Assembly (NCBI RefSeq): GCF_000151315.2
Contig: NW_011887296.1
Location: 1,122,217 to 1,186,216 of the forward strand
Direction of reading: 5' to 3'
Length of the DNA stretch: 64,000 nucleotides
From: Capsaspora owczarzaki ATCC 30864
Taxonomy: Eukaryota; Opisthokonta; Filasterea
In this document: piece by piece, positions 17,402 to 56,165 of the stretch
Numbering within the stretch: the first letter of the stretch is position 1
Layout: each line of letters opens with the position of its first letter
The notes under the pieces: model-generated
The model's input: only the letters and a program-made list of their open reading frames with translations
What the model was told of the DNA's origin: nothing
Database searches by the model: none
Program-made: the position numbers and the translations under genes

Positions 17402-20400
17402 ATGTCGCAGGAAGAGCACTTTGGCGGCGGCGGCGGTGCGGGCGGGTCAGACGACGACGCCAACAACAGCGACGACGCGACGAGCAATCCCTCGTTCCAA
17501 GATCACGTCCATCGCGACCCAGCAGCCCATCCACAGCAGCAGGAGGAAGGCGATGCAGCGCACACAACGCGCGAGCCAGTGCCACTCGCTGCCGCTGCCG
17601 AGGTCCGCGCGACCGTCACGCCCATTGCAAGCGGTGGCGGTGGGTCGCGTCCGAGCAATTTGCTGCTCTCCTTTGCCCCGTCGTCCCCGCTGACCCACGC
17701 TGCCCTGCTGGTGTACCTGCTTCAGCTGCGTACGGAAGCCACTGCCGCGATCTCTGCTTGCGACGGCCTCCAACCGGGGGTCGCTGCTGCTGCTGCTGCT
17801 GCTGCTCCGGAGGCTTCGATCGGCTCTGTGCTGTCCTCAGCTGTCGCTTCCACTGCCGTCCACGCAGAGGAGGTGGACGCTGCTATTGGCATTTGCCGGG
17901 CGCTGTCTGGCTACTCGGCCATTGCCCACTCGCAGGCATTGCACCACTCCTTGCCAACGGCAGAATTTGATGCATTCTGCAGTTTCGCTCTGAGCGTGTG
18001 GACCATTTCGCCCAACTTGAAAGGCAAAACCCTGCAAGAGCCAGTGCGTTATCGTGTGTTGACCACGACATCCATCATGCTTCTCTGGGCGCTGTCGCAT
18101 GACGCGAGCCCATGCCCGTCCTCGAGCGCGACGGCCATCGCGAGTCTTGCCAGCGCCGTTGCCAAGGCTGTGTCCTCGGGCGAGCTGATGTGGGAGGAAG
18201 TACGAGAGTGGGAGCACGCATGGGGCCGCATTGGACTGCTGCTGCACAGGCAAGCGCTGAATCTGCACCAGAGCTTCCAGGAGTTGGCGGCGCTCGTTCA
18301 GATGGCTGCCAACGACGTGCACTACAGCACTGATCCGATCAAGTCGATTGAGCTTTTGCTTGCCCAGCGAAAGCGAATCCTACTGGCGATTAAAAAGATC
18401 AAAGGCCAGCCATCGCCCGCTGCAGCCACTGCTGCCGCTGCAGCCGGAGGGTTGGCGTTGGGCGAGTTTGCCAACGATGGCGGCGATTCTCTCCTCCACA
18501 CTGGTTCGTTGGAATGCGTGCTGTTGGATTACATTAGTCTCTACGTGCTCGGGTCTTCCGACGCCAGCCGAGTGTGGCACGCATGCTGGAGCGCGCGCGG
18601 TCGTCGACGCCTTCCAGTCCTCCTGCGCGGCATCGAGACAATCGCACGCTTGGGCGCTACGCATCCCACGCAACTCGCTGCCATGATCAAAGGAACGCCC
18701 TCTTCCGCAGATCTCATCACCTTGGAGCAGCTGGCCTCGAGCGCCGAGCAACGCAAAGAGCAACGACCATTCTTGCTCGAAATCTTCAAGTCCAAAACGG
18801 TGTTTCCCGACTGGCAGCTCGTGCACAAGTTGGCTGTTGCGCTTGCCATGCAACTGCACCACCCCATCGCCGTGTGGGAGGGATCTGTACTCGCGGCGTA
18901 CGCGCGCCAAATCGATGCTGCTGGCCCAAGCCCCGACTGGCCCGAAGCAAAGCAGGTGCTTCAAAACCTTCGTACGCGCAAAGAAGATGCCTTGCTTGCG
19001 CCAGCCGAGCTTGACGCCCTCATCCGCGCGGCAGCCGCAGTCCCGCCTCCGACCGATGCTGCCGTCGCACCGCTCGTCAACGTTGAACTAAAGTACCGTC
19101 ATCTGCATTCGAAAACGATTGACGTGTCCATCTTCAGTCAGGACGTTTGCTCGCAAACGGTCGAGCACGCCGCCGACTGGTTTGCCCTCGTCAACCCGAC
19201 CAGTGCGTCCACCCTTGAAGCTCTGGCGACGGTGTGCGACTACATCATTTCCCAACGAACCGTCGCAGCGACGAGCACTGACGGCGGCAGGGCGCTGGAT
19301 GCAGTCTTTGCCGTCATGTTGGCCAATTCCATGCGCACTCTGCTGCCAGACCAGCGTCTTGCACGCACTGCCGCCATCGTTCCCGTTTTGAAACGCCATG
19401 CCAAGACACTTTTGGAAGGCACTCTGCCGACCAAGAGCGTTTCCGTCTTCTTTGACACGCTTTCAACGGCTCGACAACAGTCCAACGCGGCCGAACTGGC
19501 GGGAATGCAGGCGATTTTCACCGAGTTTTTGCGCCAATGGAAGGCGCAACAGTCCTGCGCTGCGGAGTTGGTTCAGCTGGCTGTCCAGCATGCTGCGACC
19601 ACCGCTGCCCCGGATGGCATCCTCCTTCGCCTGGGCTGGCTGGTTGCTGGAGATTCGTCGTCGAACAACCGCTTCCTTGGCCGTGAGATTGTCGCACACC
19701 GCCAAGCCGGTGCGTACTTGCGCCATCTCCCCGCGCTCTATCCGTCAAGCGATCAGGCTGTTTTGGGCAAGCTTGCAAAGCTTTGCGGCCTTGACATTCC
19801 CATGACGACGGCCGTGTCAGAGTCCCCAGCCCTCGCGGACAACGAGCTCATCCGCTTTGCCCTGCAGGCCAAGCCTGCTCCCTGGTCTGCTGAGCTTTGG
19901 ATTGCGTTTGTCGGGGCGGCGAGCATGTTCTGGAGTGGCGACTCTACTGCGCGCATGTGCATGGCCTTGGTTGATCAACTCGTTGACAAGTTGCAAGGGC
20001 AGCAGCACGTGAGTGTCGTGTTGTCGGCTGTTGCTGCTGCTGCCAGGCAGTCTCGACGTGCGGCCACGCTGCTTGCCAACGGGCAGTCCGCGGCCGCTCC
20101 AGCCGAAGCTGCAACAACGGCCCACCAGCAACCACGGGCTGGCTACGACAGCTCCTTGCGCCACTGGCTGGCTGATTTCCTCCCCTTGGAGGACGTCACC
20201 CGCGGCGGCGTGTCTCTCACCACGGAGGCCATTACCAAAGGCGCAGAAGAGTCGATGGCGGCCCCAGAGTCCCTCTTGGAGTTTGCGCAGCGTGTCGCAA
20301 AGCTCCGAATCCATCTGTACGAGCTGCGCTTCCCCGAGAAATCGCTGGAGCAGGTTATCGAGGAATTCGAGCAGCAGATGGTCACCTTGCCAGCCGCCGA

Positions 20401-23400
20401 GTTCAAGGTGATTGTCGACCAGTTCCGTCTCATCAAGGCGCAGTACATGAGAGATGCAGTGCACGAGTGGGATGAGGCGCGCCTGCGAGCAGCCATCCGC
20501 GCGCATCGAGCTGCTATTGCGCACGCCGATGGGACGGGCCGGGGAGGCGCCGGACTGGCACCCGATCTGGCCACGCGCTTTGACCTCACTTCGTTGGTGC
20601 TGATTCGCGAAGCCATTCGCATCCACAAGGGCTACCGGCCGTACAATACGCAGATGCTGGTTGTGCTGAGCTTGCTCGCCACGCCGCGCAAGGGACGCCT
20701 TGGACAAGTCAAAACGGGCCAAGGCAAGAGCGTGGTGGTTTCCATGCTTGCTGCGACAATGGCCATGCGCGGGCATCCCGTCGACATTGTCACGTCGTCA
20801 GTCTCGCTCGCTCGCCGCGACGCAAAGGAGATGGCAGGATTCTTCCACCTGTTTGACCTCAAAGTGACGCACAATACCGACAAAAACCCCACCCACCAGC
20901 AAAACTATGCCGCCGAGATTGTGTACGGCGATGCCTTCCATTTTGAACACGCGCAGCTGATGGACTCGTACGACTTTGAAACAGTCCGCACCCCGCGCCC
21001 TTACGGCATTGCGATTGTGGACGAGGTCGACTCGATGCTCATCGATCGCGCGAGCTTTTCGACTCGCATCATTTATCAATCCGAGCTCTTTTACCGCGTG
21101 CAGTGGATCTACCCCATTCTCCTCCAGCTCAGCCAGGCCTCGCCGCCACCGTCTGCTGCGGACATGACGGCGACCGTGCTGCAGTCCAAGCCCTTCAAGC
21201 AGTGCAGTGATTTCATCAAGGAGTTTGTTCAGAGCCAGCTGCCGTATTGGGCTCGGTCGGCTGTGCGCGCCCGCCACTTGCAGCGAGCCAGAGACTACAT
21301 TGTTGTGCCAGAGGGGATCAAGATTGTGGATTTCGAGCACACTGGCGAGATTCACGAAAACATGTTCCACATGGCCAGTTTGCATCAGCTGCTCGAGCTC
21401 AGAGAGGGCCTGAGGCCGTCGTTGGATCGGCTCATGGGCTGTCACCTGTCGCACATCACGCTGTTCAACAAGTACACGCGCATTCTCGGGTTGAGCGGCA
21501 CTTTGGGTGACGAGACTGAGCGCAAAGAGCTGCTGGCCTTCTATGATCTCGACACGTTCGACGTCCCTGTCCACACCATGGGCAAACTCGATGTGCGGTC
21601 ACCAGTCATCACAGGCGGCCGTGTCGAGTGGTTTGACTCGATTCAAGCAGAGATGCTGCAACAGGCCAAGGTGGGACGGCCCGTTCTCATTCTCTTCCGG
21701 AGCATTGCCGATTGCAACGAGTTCCACAAGAGCTGCAACTCGTTGACGTCGGGACTTTTGGCTGCACAAGACTCTGAAGGCGCCCTTCCCATCCAGTTCC
21801 AACTCTTGAACGGTGTGCAAGCCGAGGAGGAGGAAGCTGTCGTGTCTCGCGCTGGCAAGGAGGGCGTCATCACGCTGGCCACCAACATGGCGGGTCGCGG
21901 CACCGACATTCGCACGTGGAAGCGTGCCGAGGCGAACGGAGGCACGCACGTCATTCTCACCTTCTTCCCTCTCAACGAGCGCGTCCAAGCTCAGGCGTTT
22001 GGCCGCACTGCCCGCCAAGGCAAGCAAGGTTCGGTTCGCTTTGTTCTCAACACGTCCGATCTCTCCAAGCATATTTCCCAACTGCCCCCGCCGCTTCAAG
22101 CTCCGGGTGCTGCTGCAGCGGACGTTGTCGCCGGCCTGGCCGCGCTACGACTGGCACGCGAGCAGATCAGTTCGCAAATGCGTCTGCGTGTGCACGGTCC
22201 GTTGGCGATCTGGCAAGATTCGATTGTCGATCGCTTTTGCCAACGCATGGCCGTTTGGAAGAAGAACACCAACTATGACTCGCACGCCATGGATGGTGCG
22301 CGCGCTCAGTGGGTGACGTTTTTCTCTCTGCTCAACCTCGCCGTGATTGCGGTTGAGGCCCACTCGGACGACCATACGCAAGATGCCGTCGCCAAGTCGG
22401 AGGGAGCCGTCAAAGAATTCATCCAGGAAAACGAGACCAAGTTTACCAACACGATCAATCAAATCCAAAAGTCGCTCGAGAAGGGCGACGCCATCAAAGA
22501 CCCAATCATCATGATTGACAAAGCGTTTGGCCTGATTGACGATTCCTCGTACGATGAGGCTGTGAGCGTGAGCTCGAACGCCATCAAGGTGGACAGCGAC
22601 TACTCGCGCGCCTATTCTGCGCTTGCTACTGCGTACGCTTCGATGCCCAACAAGCAGAGCAACGCCAAGAGCGCCTGGCAAAAGTGCGAGGCCGCGACCA
22701 AGCGCGCGCTGGAGATTGATCCCACCAACAGGGCAGAGTTGATCATGCGTGTGCTGGCGCTCAGGGCTCTGGGTCGTGGAGCAGAGGCGAATGAAGCGCA
22801 AAACGAGGCCATCAAAGCACTCACCACCAAGCAGTTGACCACGGATCTTGCCCCTCCTGCTGCAAGCTCGGCCACCAGTCCGACAAGTTCCAGTCTCAAC
22901 AGCCAAACATACACCGACATTTGCAATGTCTGCTACAAGCTGGAAAGTGTGGCGAATAGCGGCGACTTGCGAAAGGACCTGCTCGATCGTGCCATCAGTC
23001 TGTCTCCCACTCCAGAATGGGCCCTCCGCTTGCGCGCCCGTTGGCACATTAAGCGGCATGAAGTCACCATGGCGCTCCAGGACCTTGATCGCGCACTGCT
23101 GTGCAAACCGACGGCCGAGCAGCTCAAGTTTATCGGCATGACGCGCAACTGGGCGTACAGGAAGCAGGGAACGATCATGGCCGACGCTCAGCGCTACCCG
23201 GAGGCCATCGCCTGGTTTGCAGGCGCCTTCCAGTTCCATCCCGCCACCTCTGGGCATCTGGTTACGCTGTCATTCTACCATGCCAAGGCAGGGAACAAGG
23301 CTTTGGCGTACACGATCGCGTGCGACGCAGTGCGCCTGAATCCCAATGATGATGATGCGTATGTCAACAGAGGAGCGTACGGTGCCGCGGCGGGCGTGCC

Positions 23401-23491
23401 GGTGCACCAACGACGCGCAGACTTCCTGAAGGCGCTCCAACTCAATCCCAAGAATGAGCTTGCGCGCAGCAACCTGCGCTCCCTGAATTAA
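17402..23491 (+). CDS. SecA-like DEAD-type ATPase with C-terminal TPRs, 2029 aa, single exon
   Basis: One uninterrupted 6.1-kb frame; ATG 17402 follows an AACAA-rich leader (the frame is open a further 38 codons upstream). Residues 1-~1050 are a disordered Gly/Ala/His N-terminus then helical sequence without a recognised domain. Residues ~1080-1560 match the SecA motor: YNTQMLVVLSLL, Walker A KTGQGKS (~1106), SLARRDAKEMAGF, DEVDSMLID (Walker B, ~1205), LSGTLGD, ATNMAGRGTDI (~1495) and AFGRTARQG (~1535). From ~1700 the C-terminus is TPR-like (YDEAVSVSSNAIKVDSDYSRAYSALATAY and later pairs). The C-terminal zinc motif and SecB-binding tail of bacterial SecA are absent, and no plastid transit peptide is evident. 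It is likely a cytosolic ATP-driven machine of unknown substrate (inference). Confidence 0.8.
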   Translation: MSQEEHFGGGGGAGGSDDDANNSDDATSNPSFQDHVHRDPAAHPQQQEEGDAAHTTREPVPLAAAAEVRATVTPIASGGGGSRPSNLLLSFAPSSPLTHAALLVYLLQLRTEATAAISACDGLQPGVAAAAAAAAPEASIGSVLSSAVASTAVHAEEVDAAIGICRALSGYSAIAHSQALHHSLPTAEFDAFCSFALSVWTISPNLKGKTLQEPVRYRVLTTTSIMLLWALSHDASPCPSSSATAIASLASAVAKAVSSGELMWEEVREWEHAWGRIGLLLHRQALNLHQSFQELAALVQMAANDVHYSTDPIKSIELLLAQRKRILLAIKKIKGQPSPAAATAAAAAGGLALGEFANDGGDSLLHTGSLECVLLDYISLYVLGSSDASRVWHACWSARGRRRLPVLLRGIETIARLGATHPTQLAAMIKGTPSSADLITLEQLASSAEQRKEQRPFLLEIFKSKTVFPDWQLVHKLAVALAMQLHHPIAVWEGSVLAAYARQIDAAGPSPDWPEAKQVLQNLRTRKEDALLAPAELDALIRAAAAVPPPTDAAVAPLVNVELKYRHLHSKTIDVSIFSQDVCSQTVEHAADWFALVNPTSASTLEALATVCDYIISQRTVAATSTDGGRALDAVFAVMLANSMRTLLPDQRLARTAAIVPVLKRHAKTLLEGTLPTKSVSVFFDTLSTARQQSNAAELAGMQAIFTEFLRQWKAQQSCAAELVQLAVQHAATTAAPDGILLRLGWLVAGDSSSNNRFLGREIVAHRQAGAYLRHLPALYPSSDQAVLGKLAKLCGLDIPMTTAVSESPALADNELIRFALQAKPAPWSAELWIAFVGAASMFWSGDSTARMCMALVDQLVDKLQGQQHVSVVLSAVAAAARQSRRAATLLANGQSAAAPAEAATTAHQQPRAGYDSSLRHWLADFLPLEDVTRGGVSLTTEAITKGAEESMAAPESLLEFAQRVAKLRIHLYELRFPEKSLEQVIEEFEQQMVTLPAAEFKVIVDQFRLIKAQYMRDAVHEWDEARLRAAIRAHRAAIAHADGTGRGGAGLAPDLATRFDLTSLVLIREAIRIHKGYRPYNTQMLVVLSLLATPRKGRLGQVKTGQGKSVVVSMLAATMAMRGHPVDIVTSSVSLARRDAKEMAGFFHLFDLKVTHNTDKNPTHQQNYAAEIVYGDAFHFEHAQLMDSYDFETVRTPRPYGIAIVDEVDSMLIDRASFSTRIIYQSELFYRVQWIYPILLQLSQASPPPSAADMTATVLQSKPFKQCSDFIKEFVQSQLPYWARSAVRARHLQRARDYIVVPEGIKIVDFEHTGEIHENMFHMASLHQLLELREGLRPSLDRLMGCHLSHITLFNKYTRILGLSGTLGDETERKELLAFYDLDTFDVPVHTMGKLDVRSPVITGGRVEWFDSIQAEMLQQAKVGRPVLILFRSIADCNEFHKSCNSLTSGLLAAQDSEGALPIQFQLLNGVQAEEEEAVVSRAGKEGVITLATNMAGRGTDIRTWKRAEANGGTHVILTFFPLNERVQAQAFGRTARQGKQGSVRFVLNTSDLSKHISQLPPPLQAPGAAAADVVAGLAALRLAREQISSQMRLRVHGPLAIWQDSIVDRFCQRMAVWKKNTNYDSHAMDGARAQWVTFFSLLNLAVIAVEAHSDDHTQDAVAKSEGAVKEFIQENETKFTNTINQIQKSLEKGDAIKDPIIMIDKAFGLIDDSSYDEAVSVSSNAIKVDSDYSRAYSALATAYASMPNKQSNAKSAWQKCEAATKRALEIDPTNRAELIMRVLALRALGRGAEANEAQNEAIKALTTKQLTTDLAPPAASSATSPTSSSLNSQTYTDICNVCYKLESVANSGDLRKDLLDRAISLSPTPEWALRLRARWHIKRHEVTMALQDLDRALLCKPTAEQLKFIGMTRNWAYRKQGTIMADAQRYPEAIAWFAGAFQFHPATSGHLVTLSFYHAKAGNKALAYTIACDAVRLNPNDDDAYVNRGAYGAAAGVPVHQRRADFLKALQLNPKNELARSNLRSLN

Positions 23492-23669: not shown

Positions 23670-26600
23670 TCACTGAGGTTGCTTCCCAGACATGAGTCGT
23701 TGAATCAGCTCATTCTGCTCAGCGAGCTGCTTGCGAAGCGCAGCAATCTCGTCATCTCGCTCTGACACAGCCCGCACGAATTCTTCCACGGGAATGAGGC
23801 GGTTGGCGGCCGTAGATAGCGGACCAGCTCCGGCGGCAGAGGCTACATCGGTAGCTGGCGGCACGGAAGCATGATGGTCGCTCGACGCGTCGTCGGCAAC
23901 GAGGAGACCAAACTCGAGAATCTGGGCGGCATCGGGTCGGTTTGCGGGGTTCTCCGCGGTCAGCCACAGCACAAACGCAGCTTCCTTGGGGTAGTCTGTC
24001 AACATGCGTTTGGGCAAAATGCCCTTGCGCAAGTCACGCAGCGCAATCGCTCGCTCCATGTCTGTTGCGAACGGACAGAAAAGCTCAAAGAAGATGATGC
24101 CCAAGCTGTAAATATCGGCTTGGTAGTCGTAGTTGTTTCCGTTCAGTTGCTCGGGAGCAGCGTACGTCACAGTGCCGACACCCGAAGTGAGGCCAGAGGT
24201 CTCGCTTTCGAGAAGGGAATGCGCAGTCGCGTCCAGGGAGGTGATGGAGGCGCGGTTTAGCCCGTTCTGTCCCCCAGCGCGGCGATTGCGCGCCGCTACC
24301 AAAGCAGACGCAGCGCTCAACGGAGCAGCGGATCCCGCAGCACCACTAGAAGGAGCGCCATCCACAGCCACAGCCACAGCCGCGGGAGGTGACAAGGGCG
24401 ACGGCACAGTTGCATTCGGCTGCGGCGTCACTGCTAATGACGACGAGGGGCTGGTGCCATCTGTGCTCTGCTCGTCCGTGGACGTTGCTGTATCCTCGAA
24501 AGCAATGTCGGCCGCAAGCCCAAAGTCGCCAATCTTGACCTGAGATGCCGAATCCAACAAAAACAGGTTGCTGGGCTTGAGATCGCGGTGCACAATGCCT
24601 TGCGAGTGGATGTACGCAACGCCCAGCAAGGTTTGGCGGAAAAAGTTCATGTTTTGCTTTGGATCAATCACAGAGTACGGATTGATGGGGCTGGTGTTGC
24701 TGACGGAGGTAGCAGACAACGGGAATGCTGGCGGCTGCTGGGTTGCCACGTTGGGAGACGAGACATTGGACTGGGCCATGTTGGCAAAACGAGCGTTACG
24801 AGCCTTAAGCCAGTCACGAAGCGTGTACTCGCACAGTTGCATTTGGATGAAGAGGGTCAGGCGCATTTGTAGCAGCGGATTTGCGGGTAACTCTTCGCTA
24901 TCGCGTCCCTTGGTGGGAGCGGCGACGGCGGCTGAGCCAAGCTTGTTTGAATGAGGACCAGCGTGCCGCATTGGTGGATGGCCGGGATTGTGCTTTGGGT
25001 GGGGATGGGGGAAGGAGTTTTTGGTCAACCGATCGAGATGCGAGTGAAGCTCGTCAAGGTCCTCTTGGTCGTCTTGATCTTGGGTGGGTGTTTCATCGGA
25101 GGTAATGTCGCCAGTGCTGGGCCCCATGTTCGCGTCAATATCACCATCGTAGGACTCGCTGCCGTCGAACGAGTCGTAGTCGTCTTCAGTGACCTCGGAA
25201 TCAATGCTCGAGCTGTGGACCTCGGTGACGGTGGTGCGCGAGTACATGATGGTTTCCGCCCGTGTCTTCAAGGCACTTTGCGCGAGCGGGGAGGACATTG
25301 TCCCGAACGAGGCTCTCCGCTCGGGCGTCTGGGCATTCGATGAGGCAAAGACAATGTCATCAGAAGCAGTCGAGTCGGCCGACGTTGGCTGACTTGACGA
25401 GTTGCCGACGAAAAACGAGACAATGTCAGATTGCAATGCGGGATCCGTAAGCAAGCCCTCCGAGCGCAGGGTTGCCGCAATGTGAGGGGGTTGTGAAGCG
25501 AGCAACGCACTCGTGCTTGGGCGCGGATGGCCCGAATTACCGTCACGGGCAGCAGCATTAGCAGCAGCAGCAGCAGCAGCAGCCAGTCCGGAAGTCAGGC
25601 GCGAGGGCGCAGTGCTGCGACCGACGTTGGTGGTTGTGGGCGCACGGTTGTCTGGTGTGTCCGCAAGCAGCTTCCGGACAGTCAACGGCGGCGGTTGGCC
25701 TTTTTGCGAGCGGGCGAGACGCTGACGCAGGGTGCTGGGAGCCTGCGAGTACTCAATCCAGGCAGAATTGTAGCCGACAACATTGGGGTGGTCGAGCCGA
25801 GCCAACGACTTGACTTCGCGAAACACTTTGCGAAACACATCGATCTGCGTGGATTTGAGGTGAATCTTTTTCACGGCATAGTATCGACCGTCGAATTTGT
25901 TCAAGACCTTGTGAACTTTGCCAAACCCGCCTCGTCCGAGCTGGTTGTACTCGACAAAGTCATCACGGTAGCGCGAGTTGGCAAACATGCTCGACTCGAC
26001 AGCCCCGGTATCGCTTAGATTTGAGCTGAAGACGCCAGTGGGGCCCTTTGCGGTTTCGTCCAAGGCAGGCGAGTAAAACAGGCCGGGCGAGCTTGCGTTC
26101 CGGACGACAAGAGCGCCTTGAGGGCCAGAAGGGTTTCCAACAGAGTGGTCGCCACCAGCGTTCGATGCGAGATCGCTCGCGTCCCCACCAGCCAGGTATT
26201 CGAGCGAACGTGTGCGACGCAACTCCTCTTCCGTGTCCACCGCCTGGATGGCTTGCGAGATGAGCGTTCGGAAGGCCTTCTTGTAGGTGGAACGGACGGC
26301 ACTCATTTCGTCCATGAAGGATAGATTATCCACAAGTCCAATACGCGCCAGCTGCTTGCAAATCACGAAAAACAGCTGACGGTTGCGCGCCGGGTCCTTT
26401 TGCAGCATTTCGCAAAAGTTTTCCAACAGCGAGGCCAACAGAAGGTTGCTCTGCTGGCGCAGCTCATATGATACCGGGTCCATGGAGGAAGGTGCTGTGG
26501 CGGAAGGGTTAGGGGGCACGACGACGGGTGGGCTGGAAGCCAGCGGTGGCGCGAATGCAGTAGCAGTGCCATTTTTGACGACACCCGTGCTACGGTGGTG

Positions 26601-27503
26601 AGCATTGAAGGGTGGAATTTCTTCATCATAGGAGGAGCTCAGCACTGGACGCGGCGGAGAAGTGCCAGACACGATCGTCTCAGGAGAAGAGAGCGAGTCG
26701 GAACCAAAGCTCGCGGCCATGGAAGCGGCAGCCACTCGGTGCATCTCGAGGCCCTCGGGAGTCAAGCCCGAGCGAGGGGTCGCACCGGACGCCGCCACCG
26801 ATCCTGGGATGGCCATGGGCGTCGATGCCTGCCTGCGGTTTCGTTTTCGCAGCGCATTGGTGGACGAGTCGGACTCTGAGTCTACGCTGGCTTCATCATC
26901 GTCGGATTCATCGTCGTCATCGTCGTCATCGTCGTCGTCTTCATCGTCTTGGTCGCCATCGCTCAGCCAGCTCGAGTTGGACTTTGATCCGGCGGTCTTG
27001 TGGTAGCCCAGGTCATCCGGCGGCAGAGCGGGTCGGCATAGGCCGGGGTCAGGACGCTCTTGATGATTGGTAGCGTGAGACGCTGCAGACGATGAGGGGG
27101 CCCGTCGTCGTGCGGTGTGCTGGCACGATGATGCTGGACGTGCGATGAGAGTGATGAGACTGCTGCGAGTGGTGGTGGTGGTGGTGGTGGTGGTGGTGAG
27201 ACTGATGATGCGGTTCGCGGTCGCTCGAGTACTCGAACAGAATGGACGAATCCGAATCTGCCATCATTCACACCACACGGAACAGCCAGGGTCCCCCCCA
27301 GAAATGTTTGGATGATTGGAACAATTCATGAAAAAGGCATTCCGTGAGTTTTGAGTGTTAAGTCGGAAGTGCGGGGGGGGGGGAAAGAAAGAAGGGAAAG
27401 GGAGCTCGCTTTGTGTGCAAATCTTGGCGGACATACCTTCCTCCTCTTCTGCGTCAGAGCGATTTGCGCTTGCAGGCAGCGAACGCGTCGTCGCCATGGC
27501 CAT
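23670..27503 (-). CDS. EIF2AK1: HRI-like eIF2-alpha kinase with large kinase inserts
   Basis: Proposed minus-strand exons 27503-27437 and 27082-23670 (3480 nt, 1159 aa). The donor is GTATGT, the acceptor CTGCAG, and the join keeps the frame into an acidic stretch ([19 protein letters not shown]). If this join is wrong, the first in-frame ATG is at 26816. Residues ~240-305 ([29 protein letters not shown]) match the HRI N-terminal region. The kinase begins at ~400 ([18 protein letters not shown]), then an insert of ~270 residues separates the lobes, as in the PEK/HRI/GCN2 group. Next come [12 protein letters not shown] (~853), DFGLA (~874), a ~130-residue activation-segment insert, [10 protein letters not shown] and a C-terminal coiled coil. 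It should phosphorylate eIF2-alpha under stress. Convergent with the SecA-like gene (178 bp between stops). Confidence 0.85.
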
Positions 27504-56088: not shown

Positions 56089-56159
56089 GCGCTCGTAGTA
56101 CAGAGGCAGTATGTTTCCCTTCCAAGGAAATGACCCGGTTTCGATTACCGGCGTGCGCA
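56089..56159 (+). tRNA. tRNA-Gly (anticodon UCC)
   Basis: A 71-nt cloverleaf folded by hand. Acceptor GCGCTCG/CGTGCGC has one T-T mismatch. D arm: GTAC/GTAT around AGAGGCA. Anticodon arm: TTTCC-CTTCCAA-GGAAA with anticodon TCC. Variable loop TGAC. T arm: CCGGT-TTCGATT-ACCGG, a perfect stem. Discriminator A. CCTTCCAAGG..TGACCCGG..TTCGATT..CCGG resembles eukaryotic tRNA-Gly(UCC). No CCA is encoded and no intron is present. Confidence 0.88.
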
Positions 56160-56165
56160 CGGCTC

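What the first reader, a model, noticed from the sequence alone, without database searches (positions are those of the whole stretch)
17402..23491. SecA-type ATPase fused to TPRs in an apparently non-photosynthetic eukaryote
SecA is the bacterial/plastid preprotein motor. Here its Walker A, Walker B, ATNMAGRGTDI and GRTARQG motifs sit mid-protein, flanked by about 1050 unexplained N-terminal residues and a TPR tail, without zinc tail or transit peptide. The 6.1-kb ORF has no intron although most neighbours do. This suggests an old bacterial acquisition turned into a cytosolic machine with an unknown job.
Basis: partly seen in the sequence, partly recalled or inferred. Interest (0 to 1): 0.82.

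Follow-up and report, generated by a model that had tools for sequence, protein, structure and literature searches.

The report
Bacterial-type SecA motor in an amoeba
A unicellular relative of animals carries a giant protein built around the bacterial protein-pumping motor SecA; it belongs to a little-studied family shared between animals, protists and bacteria that live inside cells, and its job is still untested.

Summary
The ORF is real: 2,029 aa, Capsaspora owczarzaki CAOG_003791, one SecA locus found in the genome, among ordinary eukaryotic genes. Residues ~985-1695 form a SecA motor with its ATPase motifs. AlphaFold (pLDDT 90.9) overlays 623 residues on SecY-engaged SecA at 3.2 A: both nucleotide-binding domains, preprotein clamp and a scaffold with a finger-like hairpin, but no wing, zinc tail or predicted membrane segment. 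A TPR tail follows.

It is neither unique nor, by the evidence here, plastid SecA. It falls in a large family of giant SecA-like proteins, split from sampled canonical SecA by a long, fully supported branch. Members lie mostly in intracellular bacteria (Legionellales, Rickettsiales, Parachlamydia-type, Cardinium) and scattered eukaryotes; eukaryotic and Wolbachia members are already in print (PMC3639933, PMC5062602). The nearest kin include a bacterial gene with a textbook ribosome-binding site and the same TPR fusion, so the TPR tail is unlikely to be a eukaryotic addition. One common eukaryotic origin is rejected (p-AU 2.5e-9).

Best reading: a polypeptide-gripping ATPase acquired from bacteria, working in the cytosol without SecY; TPR and helical arms bind clients. 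Family and origin are well supported, function is inferred. New variant of a known kind; the N-terminal ~960 residues stay unexplained.

The parts
17402..23491 (+). Complete ORF, 2,029 aa plus stop (CAOG_003791; public model is 1,991 aa)
17402..17647 (+). Acidic, Gly/Ser/Asp-rich N-terminus (aa 1-82), no transit- or signal-peptide-like features
   Evidence: inference from composition
17648..20278 (+). Region aa 83-959, predicted helical; recognisably shared with the SecA-TPR relatives only from about aa 780; function unknown
   Evidence: model all-helical but pLDDT 46.5, not reliable
18504..18617 (+). 114-nt stretch annotated as an intron in the public model; reads as coding in frame; status uncertain
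20279..20635 (+). Pre-core segment with FPEKS..VIEEF motif (aa 960-1078), a similar segment in P0002, P0003, P0005, P0011, P0023, P0122, P0123
20714..20731 (+). Walker A TGQGKS (aa 1105-1110)
21020..21031 (+). DEVD, motif II (aa 1207-1210)
21059..21403 (+). Preprotein cross-linking (clamp) domain, about aa 1220-1334, compact
   Evidence: Pfam PF01043 only weak
21566..22078 (+). Second nucleotide-binding domain, about aa 1389-1559
21878..21910 (+). ATNMAGRGTDI, motif V (aa 1493-1503)
22001..22021 (+). GRTARQG, motif VI, in the family-type form (aa 1534-1540)
22115..22483 (+). Scaffold-like region aa 1572-1694: 50-residue helix, 5-residue link, two-helix hairpin; no room for a wing domain between them
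   Evidence: no sequence-profile match to the canonical scaffold
22499..23488 (+). TPR tail, aa 1700-2029

Best explanation
CAOG_003791 is a SecA-family motor of the giant SecA-like family of intracellular bacteria and eukaryotes, SecA-TPR subfamily, acquired from a bacterium with helical region, motor and TPR tail already joined. It most likely works as a soluble, SecY-independent polypeptide motor: the two nucleotide-binding domains hydrolyse ATP, the clamp closes on an unfolded segment, and the scaffold hairpin moves it stepwise, pulling clients apart or off partners, while TPR and N-terminal helical arms select clients. Shown here: family, motifs, predicted clamp and scaffold, missing wing and zinc tail, no predicted membrane segment, a bacterial relative with the same fusion. 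Inferred: ATP hydrolysis, polypeptide binding, cytosolic location, independence of Sec61, client selection by TPR.
Against: No biochemical, expression or localisation data were available. The hairpin tip is polar; the tip Tyr of canonical SecA (recalled) is not there. Scaffold homology is structural only; sequence profiles did not match it (probability 19 for 17 columns at the motif VI flank). The overlay is with a predicted model, and a fold does not show function. Sources of P0002, P0121, P0122 and P0123 are unknown, so the immediate donor is not identified. TPR next to the motor also occurs on other branches of the family (P0153 from Rotaria, P0152), so the tail may have been gained more than once. 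The N-terminal half is unresolved.
Confidence: 0.5

Rival explanations
1. Domesticated conflict protein: the motor came from a symbiont's host-directed effector or toxin-like protein and now serves Capsaspora in defence against intracellular microbes, for example by unfolding or sensing foreign proteins.
For: 24 of the 37 family loci among L002-L040 (20 of 33 assemblies) come from Legionellales, Rickettsiales, Parachlamydia-type Chlamydiota or Cardinium/Amoebophilaceae (my count from record titles; for Cyrtobacter; L031 and L032 counted as Rickettsiales from recall, one search found no such name). Precomputed Pfam accessions (names partly recalled) show relatives with NACHT+HEAT (P0005, confirmed), UCH (P0148), WHH- and AHH-type nuclease domains (P0041, P0037) and ankyrin repeats. 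SecA-like domains are listed among Amoebophilus effectors (PMC3482391 passage) and in the phage WO eukaryotic association module (PMC5062602 passages).
Against: The Capsaspora protein itself shows no toxin, nuclease, NACHT or ankyrin match at E 0.1 or better. No evidence of immune use.
Confidence: 0.22
2. A Sec61- or other membrane-coupled translocase: the motor docks on the ER translocon and pushes proteins through, as SecA does with SecY.
For: Clamp and finger-like hairpin are predicted to be retained and the good overlays include SecA-SecY complexes. One SecY-family match, presumably Sec61 alpha, is found in the genome.
Against: No predicted membrane helix, wing or C-terminal zinc tail. The hairpin tip is polar. 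Large fusions flank the motor on both sides.
Confidence: 0.1
3. A nucleic-acid helicase or a regulatory ATPase that does not move polypeptide.
Confidence: 0.1
4. Gene flow ran the other way: the family arose in eukaryotes and bacteria took it up, as Duplouy et al. 2013 inferred for Wolbachia and Amoebophilus.
For: PMC3639933 found a separate eukaryotic clade and very long genes (passages).
Against: With more bacterial sequences, one eukaryotic clade is rejected (12 eukaryotic rows of 74, lnL difference 464.9, p-AU 2.5e-9), at least 6 changes between eukaryotic and bacterial state are needed on 43 labelled rows, and the rows branching nearest canonical SecA are bacterial or environmental. Single transfers may still have gone either way.
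Confidence: 0.12
5. Plastid SecA relic, contaminant or decaying gene.
For: None found.
Against: Long fully supported branch from canonical SecA, no SecA_SW match; inside a large contig with eukaryotic neighbours and near host-like codon usage; a 2,029-codon frame with intact motifs.
Confidence: 0.02

Closest known systems
SecA-TPR proteins of environmental and bacterial sequences (P0002, P0121, P0122, P0123; P0003 = Proteobacteria MAG SZAS-82, JAFEDO010000227)
   Same: Core identity to P0002: P0121 52, Capsaspora 43, P0122 41, P0123 40, P0003 39%; local identity to Capsaspora 48% (P0002) and 41% (P0003). TPR tail in 5 of the 6; P0122 ends just after the core
   Different: The Capsaspora version sits in a eukaryotic chromosome, has an acidic low-complexity N-terminus and weaker TPR scores
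Long eukaryotic and Wolbachia secA-domain proteins (wBol1_1091/1092, wHa_3920/3930; mosquito, ant, Daphnia homologues; PMC3639933, PMC5062602)
   Same: Very long proteins with a SecA domain shared between eukaryotes and intracellular bacteria; [quoted passage not shown]
   Different: The passages read mention neither a TPR fusion to SecA nor Capsaspora; the Wolbachia proteins were not placed in my tree
Canonical SecA (Sec pathway)
   Same: Motor domains, clamp and predicted scaffold hairpin
   Different: No SecA_SW match, wing or zinc tail; more than twice as long; separate clade
M. tuberculosis SecA2 (4uaq)
   Same: Lacks the wing (recalled for this SecA2); 532 residues at 2.8 A, tied with 2ibm for the lowest rmsd among matches over 500 residues
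   Different: About 780 aa without TPR or helical arms; works with a bacterial export pathway (recalled)

Membership tests
Giant SecA-like family of intracellular bacteria and eukaryotes | SecA motor with family-type motifs (TGxGKS, VDEVDSMLID-like, GRxxRQG not followed by DPG) | tested here: met
   Capsaspora. Over 101 fetched family proteins the pattern GRxxRQG was found in 62, followed by DPG in 0; 39 do not match the pattern; 112 of 135 canonical rows have GRxxRQGDPG
Giant SecA-like family of intracellular bacteria and eukaryotes | Groups with the family and apart from canonical SecA in a tree | tested here: met
   100 support, branch 1.44, 98 rows; same split with 74 and 78 rows
Giant SecA-like family of intracellular bacteria and eukaryotes | No SecA_SW domain (PF07516) | tested here: met
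   in the precomputed lists 55 of 120 rows and 50 of 120 rows lack it and were taken as the family; the other 65 and 70 have it
SecA-TPR subfamily | Pre-core FPEK segment, SecA core and TPR tail in one protein, in a supported clade | tested here: met
   stays a 6-row clade at 100 when P0142, P0152, P0153 and P0158 are added
Canonical SecA translocase | Motor domains plus preprotein cross-linking domain | tested here: met
   PF01043 below cut-off in Capsaspora, just above it in P0002 (24.4 against 23.5 bits)
Canonical SecA translocase | Scaffold and wing domain (PF07516) and, commonly, a SEC-C zinc tail | tested here: not met
   no Pfam match, only 5 residues between scaffold helix and hairpin, no zinc motif
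Canonical SecA translocase | Equivalog score in NCBIfam | tested here: not met
   186 bits against 814, 179 against 800
Canonical SecA translocase | Works with a SecY channel | not testable with these tools
   only one SecY-family match in the genome is known
Plastid SecA | Transit peptide and position within cyanobacterial/plastid SecA | tested here: inconclusive
   N-terminus acidic and far from 13 canonical rows, but no row known to be plastid or cyanobacterial was in the tree
Symbiont effector or polymorphic toxin | Toxin or effector domain on the protein | tested here: not met
   no such Pfam match at E 0.1 or better

The most novel reading that the evidence does not exclude
A complete SecA polypeptide-threading motor has been freed from the membrane: intracellular bacteria evolved a wingless, SecY-independent SecA carried inside giant client-binding proteins, and a unicellular relative of animals captured one whole, making a cytosolic unfoldase outside the AAA+ world that may act against foreign proteins.
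Probability: 0.25. Interest if true: 0.85.

Novelty: new variant of a known kind. Interest (0 to 1): 0.6.

Why it matters
SecA is the textbook motor that drives proteins through SecY. A family that appears to keep its grip-and-push parts but drops the wing and tail asks whether SecA can work as a free protein unfoldase. The family crosses between intracellular bacteria and eukaryotes several times, in fish and amphibians too, yet my paper searches turned up no tested function. Capsaspora, a cultured relative of animals (recalled) with one locus, is a clean place to test it.

Tried and rejected
Plastid SecA and contamination: disfavoured, with the gap that no plastid sequence was in the tree. 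N-terminal region: a protein search with P0123 aa 60-830 returned only P0123 (it did not even return P0122, so its reach is short), and the AlphaFold model of aa 83-1007 had pLDDT 46.5, so no fold search was run on it. Sequence-level proof of the scaffold: hhalign of 22 family against 19 canonical tails gave only the motif VI flank. Intron test by homology: undecided; one of three relatives scored clearly higher without the stretch. No family other than SecA, helicases and similar translocases was seen in the 50 VIA rows for the core; that is no proof of absence. TPR tail of aa 1890-2029: matches TPR proteins in general, O-GlcNAc transferase first; no client could be read from it. Viral contigs: one relative, L082. 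Phage records: 22 matches, the 15 listed at 25-28% identity; the three with a feature name are called SecA, so they are probably canonical. Plasmids: 131 records, many probably canonical; the best is a Megaera symbiont plasmid with a 'SecA-like domain protein'.

Literature: searches. No paper was found for CAOG_03791; Capsaspora and SecA occur together only in PMC3482391, where Capsaspora is mentioned for unrelated toxin domains. Only passages of papers were seen: PMC8195603, PMC3482391, PMC7046167, PMC3639933, PMC4256840, PMC8163844, PMC5062602, PMC1800911; PMC11696984 was searched for SecA with no occurrence (76). PMC7046167, PMC8163844 and PMC1800911 concern canonical SecA only. No bioRxiv and mostly no subscription text was available.

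Counts: trees used a selection. 98 rows out of 236 fetched proteins and 81 relative loci (L002-L082). In one search I dropped 24 of those: eight long or odd family rows (L069, L058, L020, L026, L033, P0156, P0146, P0163), all eight short SecA-like rows, and eight canonical rows. One search added four rows to these 74. Unlabelled environmental rows were left out of the change count (43 of 74 used). The trees are 'quick' ones (SH-aLRT only), and many inner branches are weak (34 of 95 open).
Full report
What is there. Window 17402-23491 (+) encodes 2,029 aa without a stop. It matches hypothetical protein CAOG_003791 of Capsaspora owczarzaki ATCC 30864 at 100% over the searched region (P0001). The public model is 38 aa shorter because a 114-nt in-frame GT-AG stretch at 18504-18617 is treated as an intron. 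Codon choice there looks coding; homology cannot decide. Duplouy et al. noted that most annotated introns in eukaryotic secA genes appear spurious (PMC3639933, passage). One SecA_DEAD match was found in the genome. Neighbours include a Rieske-type protein, an HRI-type eIF2-alpha kinase, an FtsH-type protease, RRP12, TRAPPC8, a lipid-droplet hydrolase and SDA1. Codon usage resembles theirs (0.85, 0.91 and 0.82 for N-terminal, core and C-terminal parts; neighbours among themselves 0.86-0.94).

Family. Two searches of the large protein set list 120 rows each, of 1,605 and 1,253 hits. In the first, 55 rows lack PF07516 and 65 have it; in the second 50 lack it and 70 have it. Most rows lacking it carry a distinct motif style: over 101 such proteins GRxxRQG is found in 62 and never followed by DPG, while 112 of 135 canonical rows read GRxxRQGDPG. 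By precomputed Pfam accession (names partly recalled) they occur with TPR, ankyrin, NACHT+HEAT, UCH, LRR/lectin and nuclease-type domains. Named eukaryotes include Rotaria, Didymodactylos, Hyalella, Daphnia, Culex, a moth, a liver fluke, fish and amphibians. The scan of bacterial and archaeal genomes gave 80 loci. Of the 37 family loci among L002-L040 (L037 and L039 set aside as a short and a canonical form), 24 are from Legionellales (11), Rickettsiales (7, two of them by recall), Parachlamydia-type Chlamydiota (4) or Cardinium/Amoebophilaceae (2); 13 are others or unassigned. By assembly this is 20 of 33. A ciliate symbiont plasmid carries two adjacent SecA-like genes, one of 15.7 kb.

Tree. 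In 98 rows, 77 family rows form a group at 100 on a branch of 1.44 changes per site. Capsaspora sits in a six-row clade at 100 with P0002, P0121, P0122, P0123 and the bacterial P0003. P0003 lies on an 8.5-kb contig of a Proteobacteria MAG, has TAGGAGG 8 nt before its ATG, a HEAT-repeat neighbour and GC of 27-37% along the contig. In that MAG no match to PF00562 (rpoB) and no canonical SecA was found, so it is incomplete. A reduced tree of 74 rows agrees and rejects a single eukaryotic clade (12 rows, lnL difference 464.9, p-AU 2.5e-9). At least six eukaryote/bacterium changes are needed on 43 labelled rows. This disagrees with the 2013 reading of a separate eukaryotic clade that gave genes to bacteria; my sample holds many bacterial sequences from recent MAGs. 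Direction of each transfer is not settled; for the SecA-TPR clade the outer branch is bacterial. TPR beside the motor is not confined to this clade: P0153 (Rotaria) and P0152 carry it and fall elsewhere, with P0138 and near L005.

Mechanism. The motor keeps the ATPase motifs and, by model, the clamp and hairpin that in canonical SecA hold and move polypeptide (established knowledge). It lacks the wing, zinc tail and any predicted membrane segment and is fused to helical and TPR arms. The simplest working model is a soluble polypeptide motor that remodels clients chosen by its arms. Rivals are a defence role inherited from symbiont effectors, a Sec61-coupled translocase, and a helicase-like or regulatory ATPase. 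None is tested.

Known and new. Known: long SecA-domain proteins in eukaryotes and Wolbachia (PMC3639933), the phage WO module (PMC5062602), SecA-like domains among Amoebophilus effectors (PMC3482391), lfa2470 [SecA DEAD-like] in a table of proteins of presumed eukaryotic origin in Legionella (PMC4256840), and SecA-like ATPase domains in giant actinobacterial toxins (PMC8195603); whether the last belong to this family was not tested. Not found in print by my searches: the SecA-TPR subfamily, the Capsaspora member, a bacterial SecA-TPR fusion, and the predicted retention of clamp and hairpin without the wing.

Noticed in passing
L090 347-16024 and 16046-20455 (CP113870.1): Two adjacent giant SecA-like genes, one 15.7 kb, on a plasmid of the ciliate symbiont Megaera polyxenophila; Wolbachia also has consecutively numbered pairs (wBol1_1091/1092, wHa_3920/3930), suggesting the genes may work in pairs.
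   Followed up: partly
P0005 (2,424 aa, 2-Mb contig): SecA-like motor fused to a NACHT domain and HEAT repeats, an immune-receptor-like layout.
   Followed up: no
P0148: Precomputed Pfam lists PF00443 (UCH deubiquitinase, name recalled) on the same protein as the SecA-like motor.
   Followed up: no
P0153 (Rotaria), P0152: TPR beside the SecA-like motor on a different branch of the family, one eukaryotic (P0153) and one environmental near a Cytophagales locus.
   Followed up: partly
P0032, P0038, P0048, P0055: A vertebrate clade (fish and amphibians) of 1.2-2.6 thousand aa SecA-like proteins at 100 support; three newt rows report a contig of the same length.
   Followed up: partly
L037, L041, L043, L044, L049, L056, L063, L072: Short SecA-like proteins (open frames 634-671 aa) in Planctomycetota, Erythrobacteraceae and a Gammaproteobacterium, between canonical SecA and the giant family in the tree.
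   Followed up: no
L026, L033, P0150, P0160, P0163, P0164: A divergent branch in Oscillospiraceae-type bacteria (L026, L033 and P0163 in the tree at 100); the four P-rows carry LRR and, in three, ricin-type lectin domains (Pfam names recalled).
   Followed up: no
L002 6876-8450 (-) and G001 C252, C224: The SZAS-82 genome has several HEAT-repeat proteins, one beside its SecA-TPR gene.
   Followed up: partly
window 23670-26816 (-): HRI-type eIF2-alpha kinase in one long frame, kinase domain matched in pieces with low-complexity inserts.
   Followed up: no
window 56089-56160 (+): tRNA-Gly (TCC), the only tRNA found in the window.
   Followed up: no
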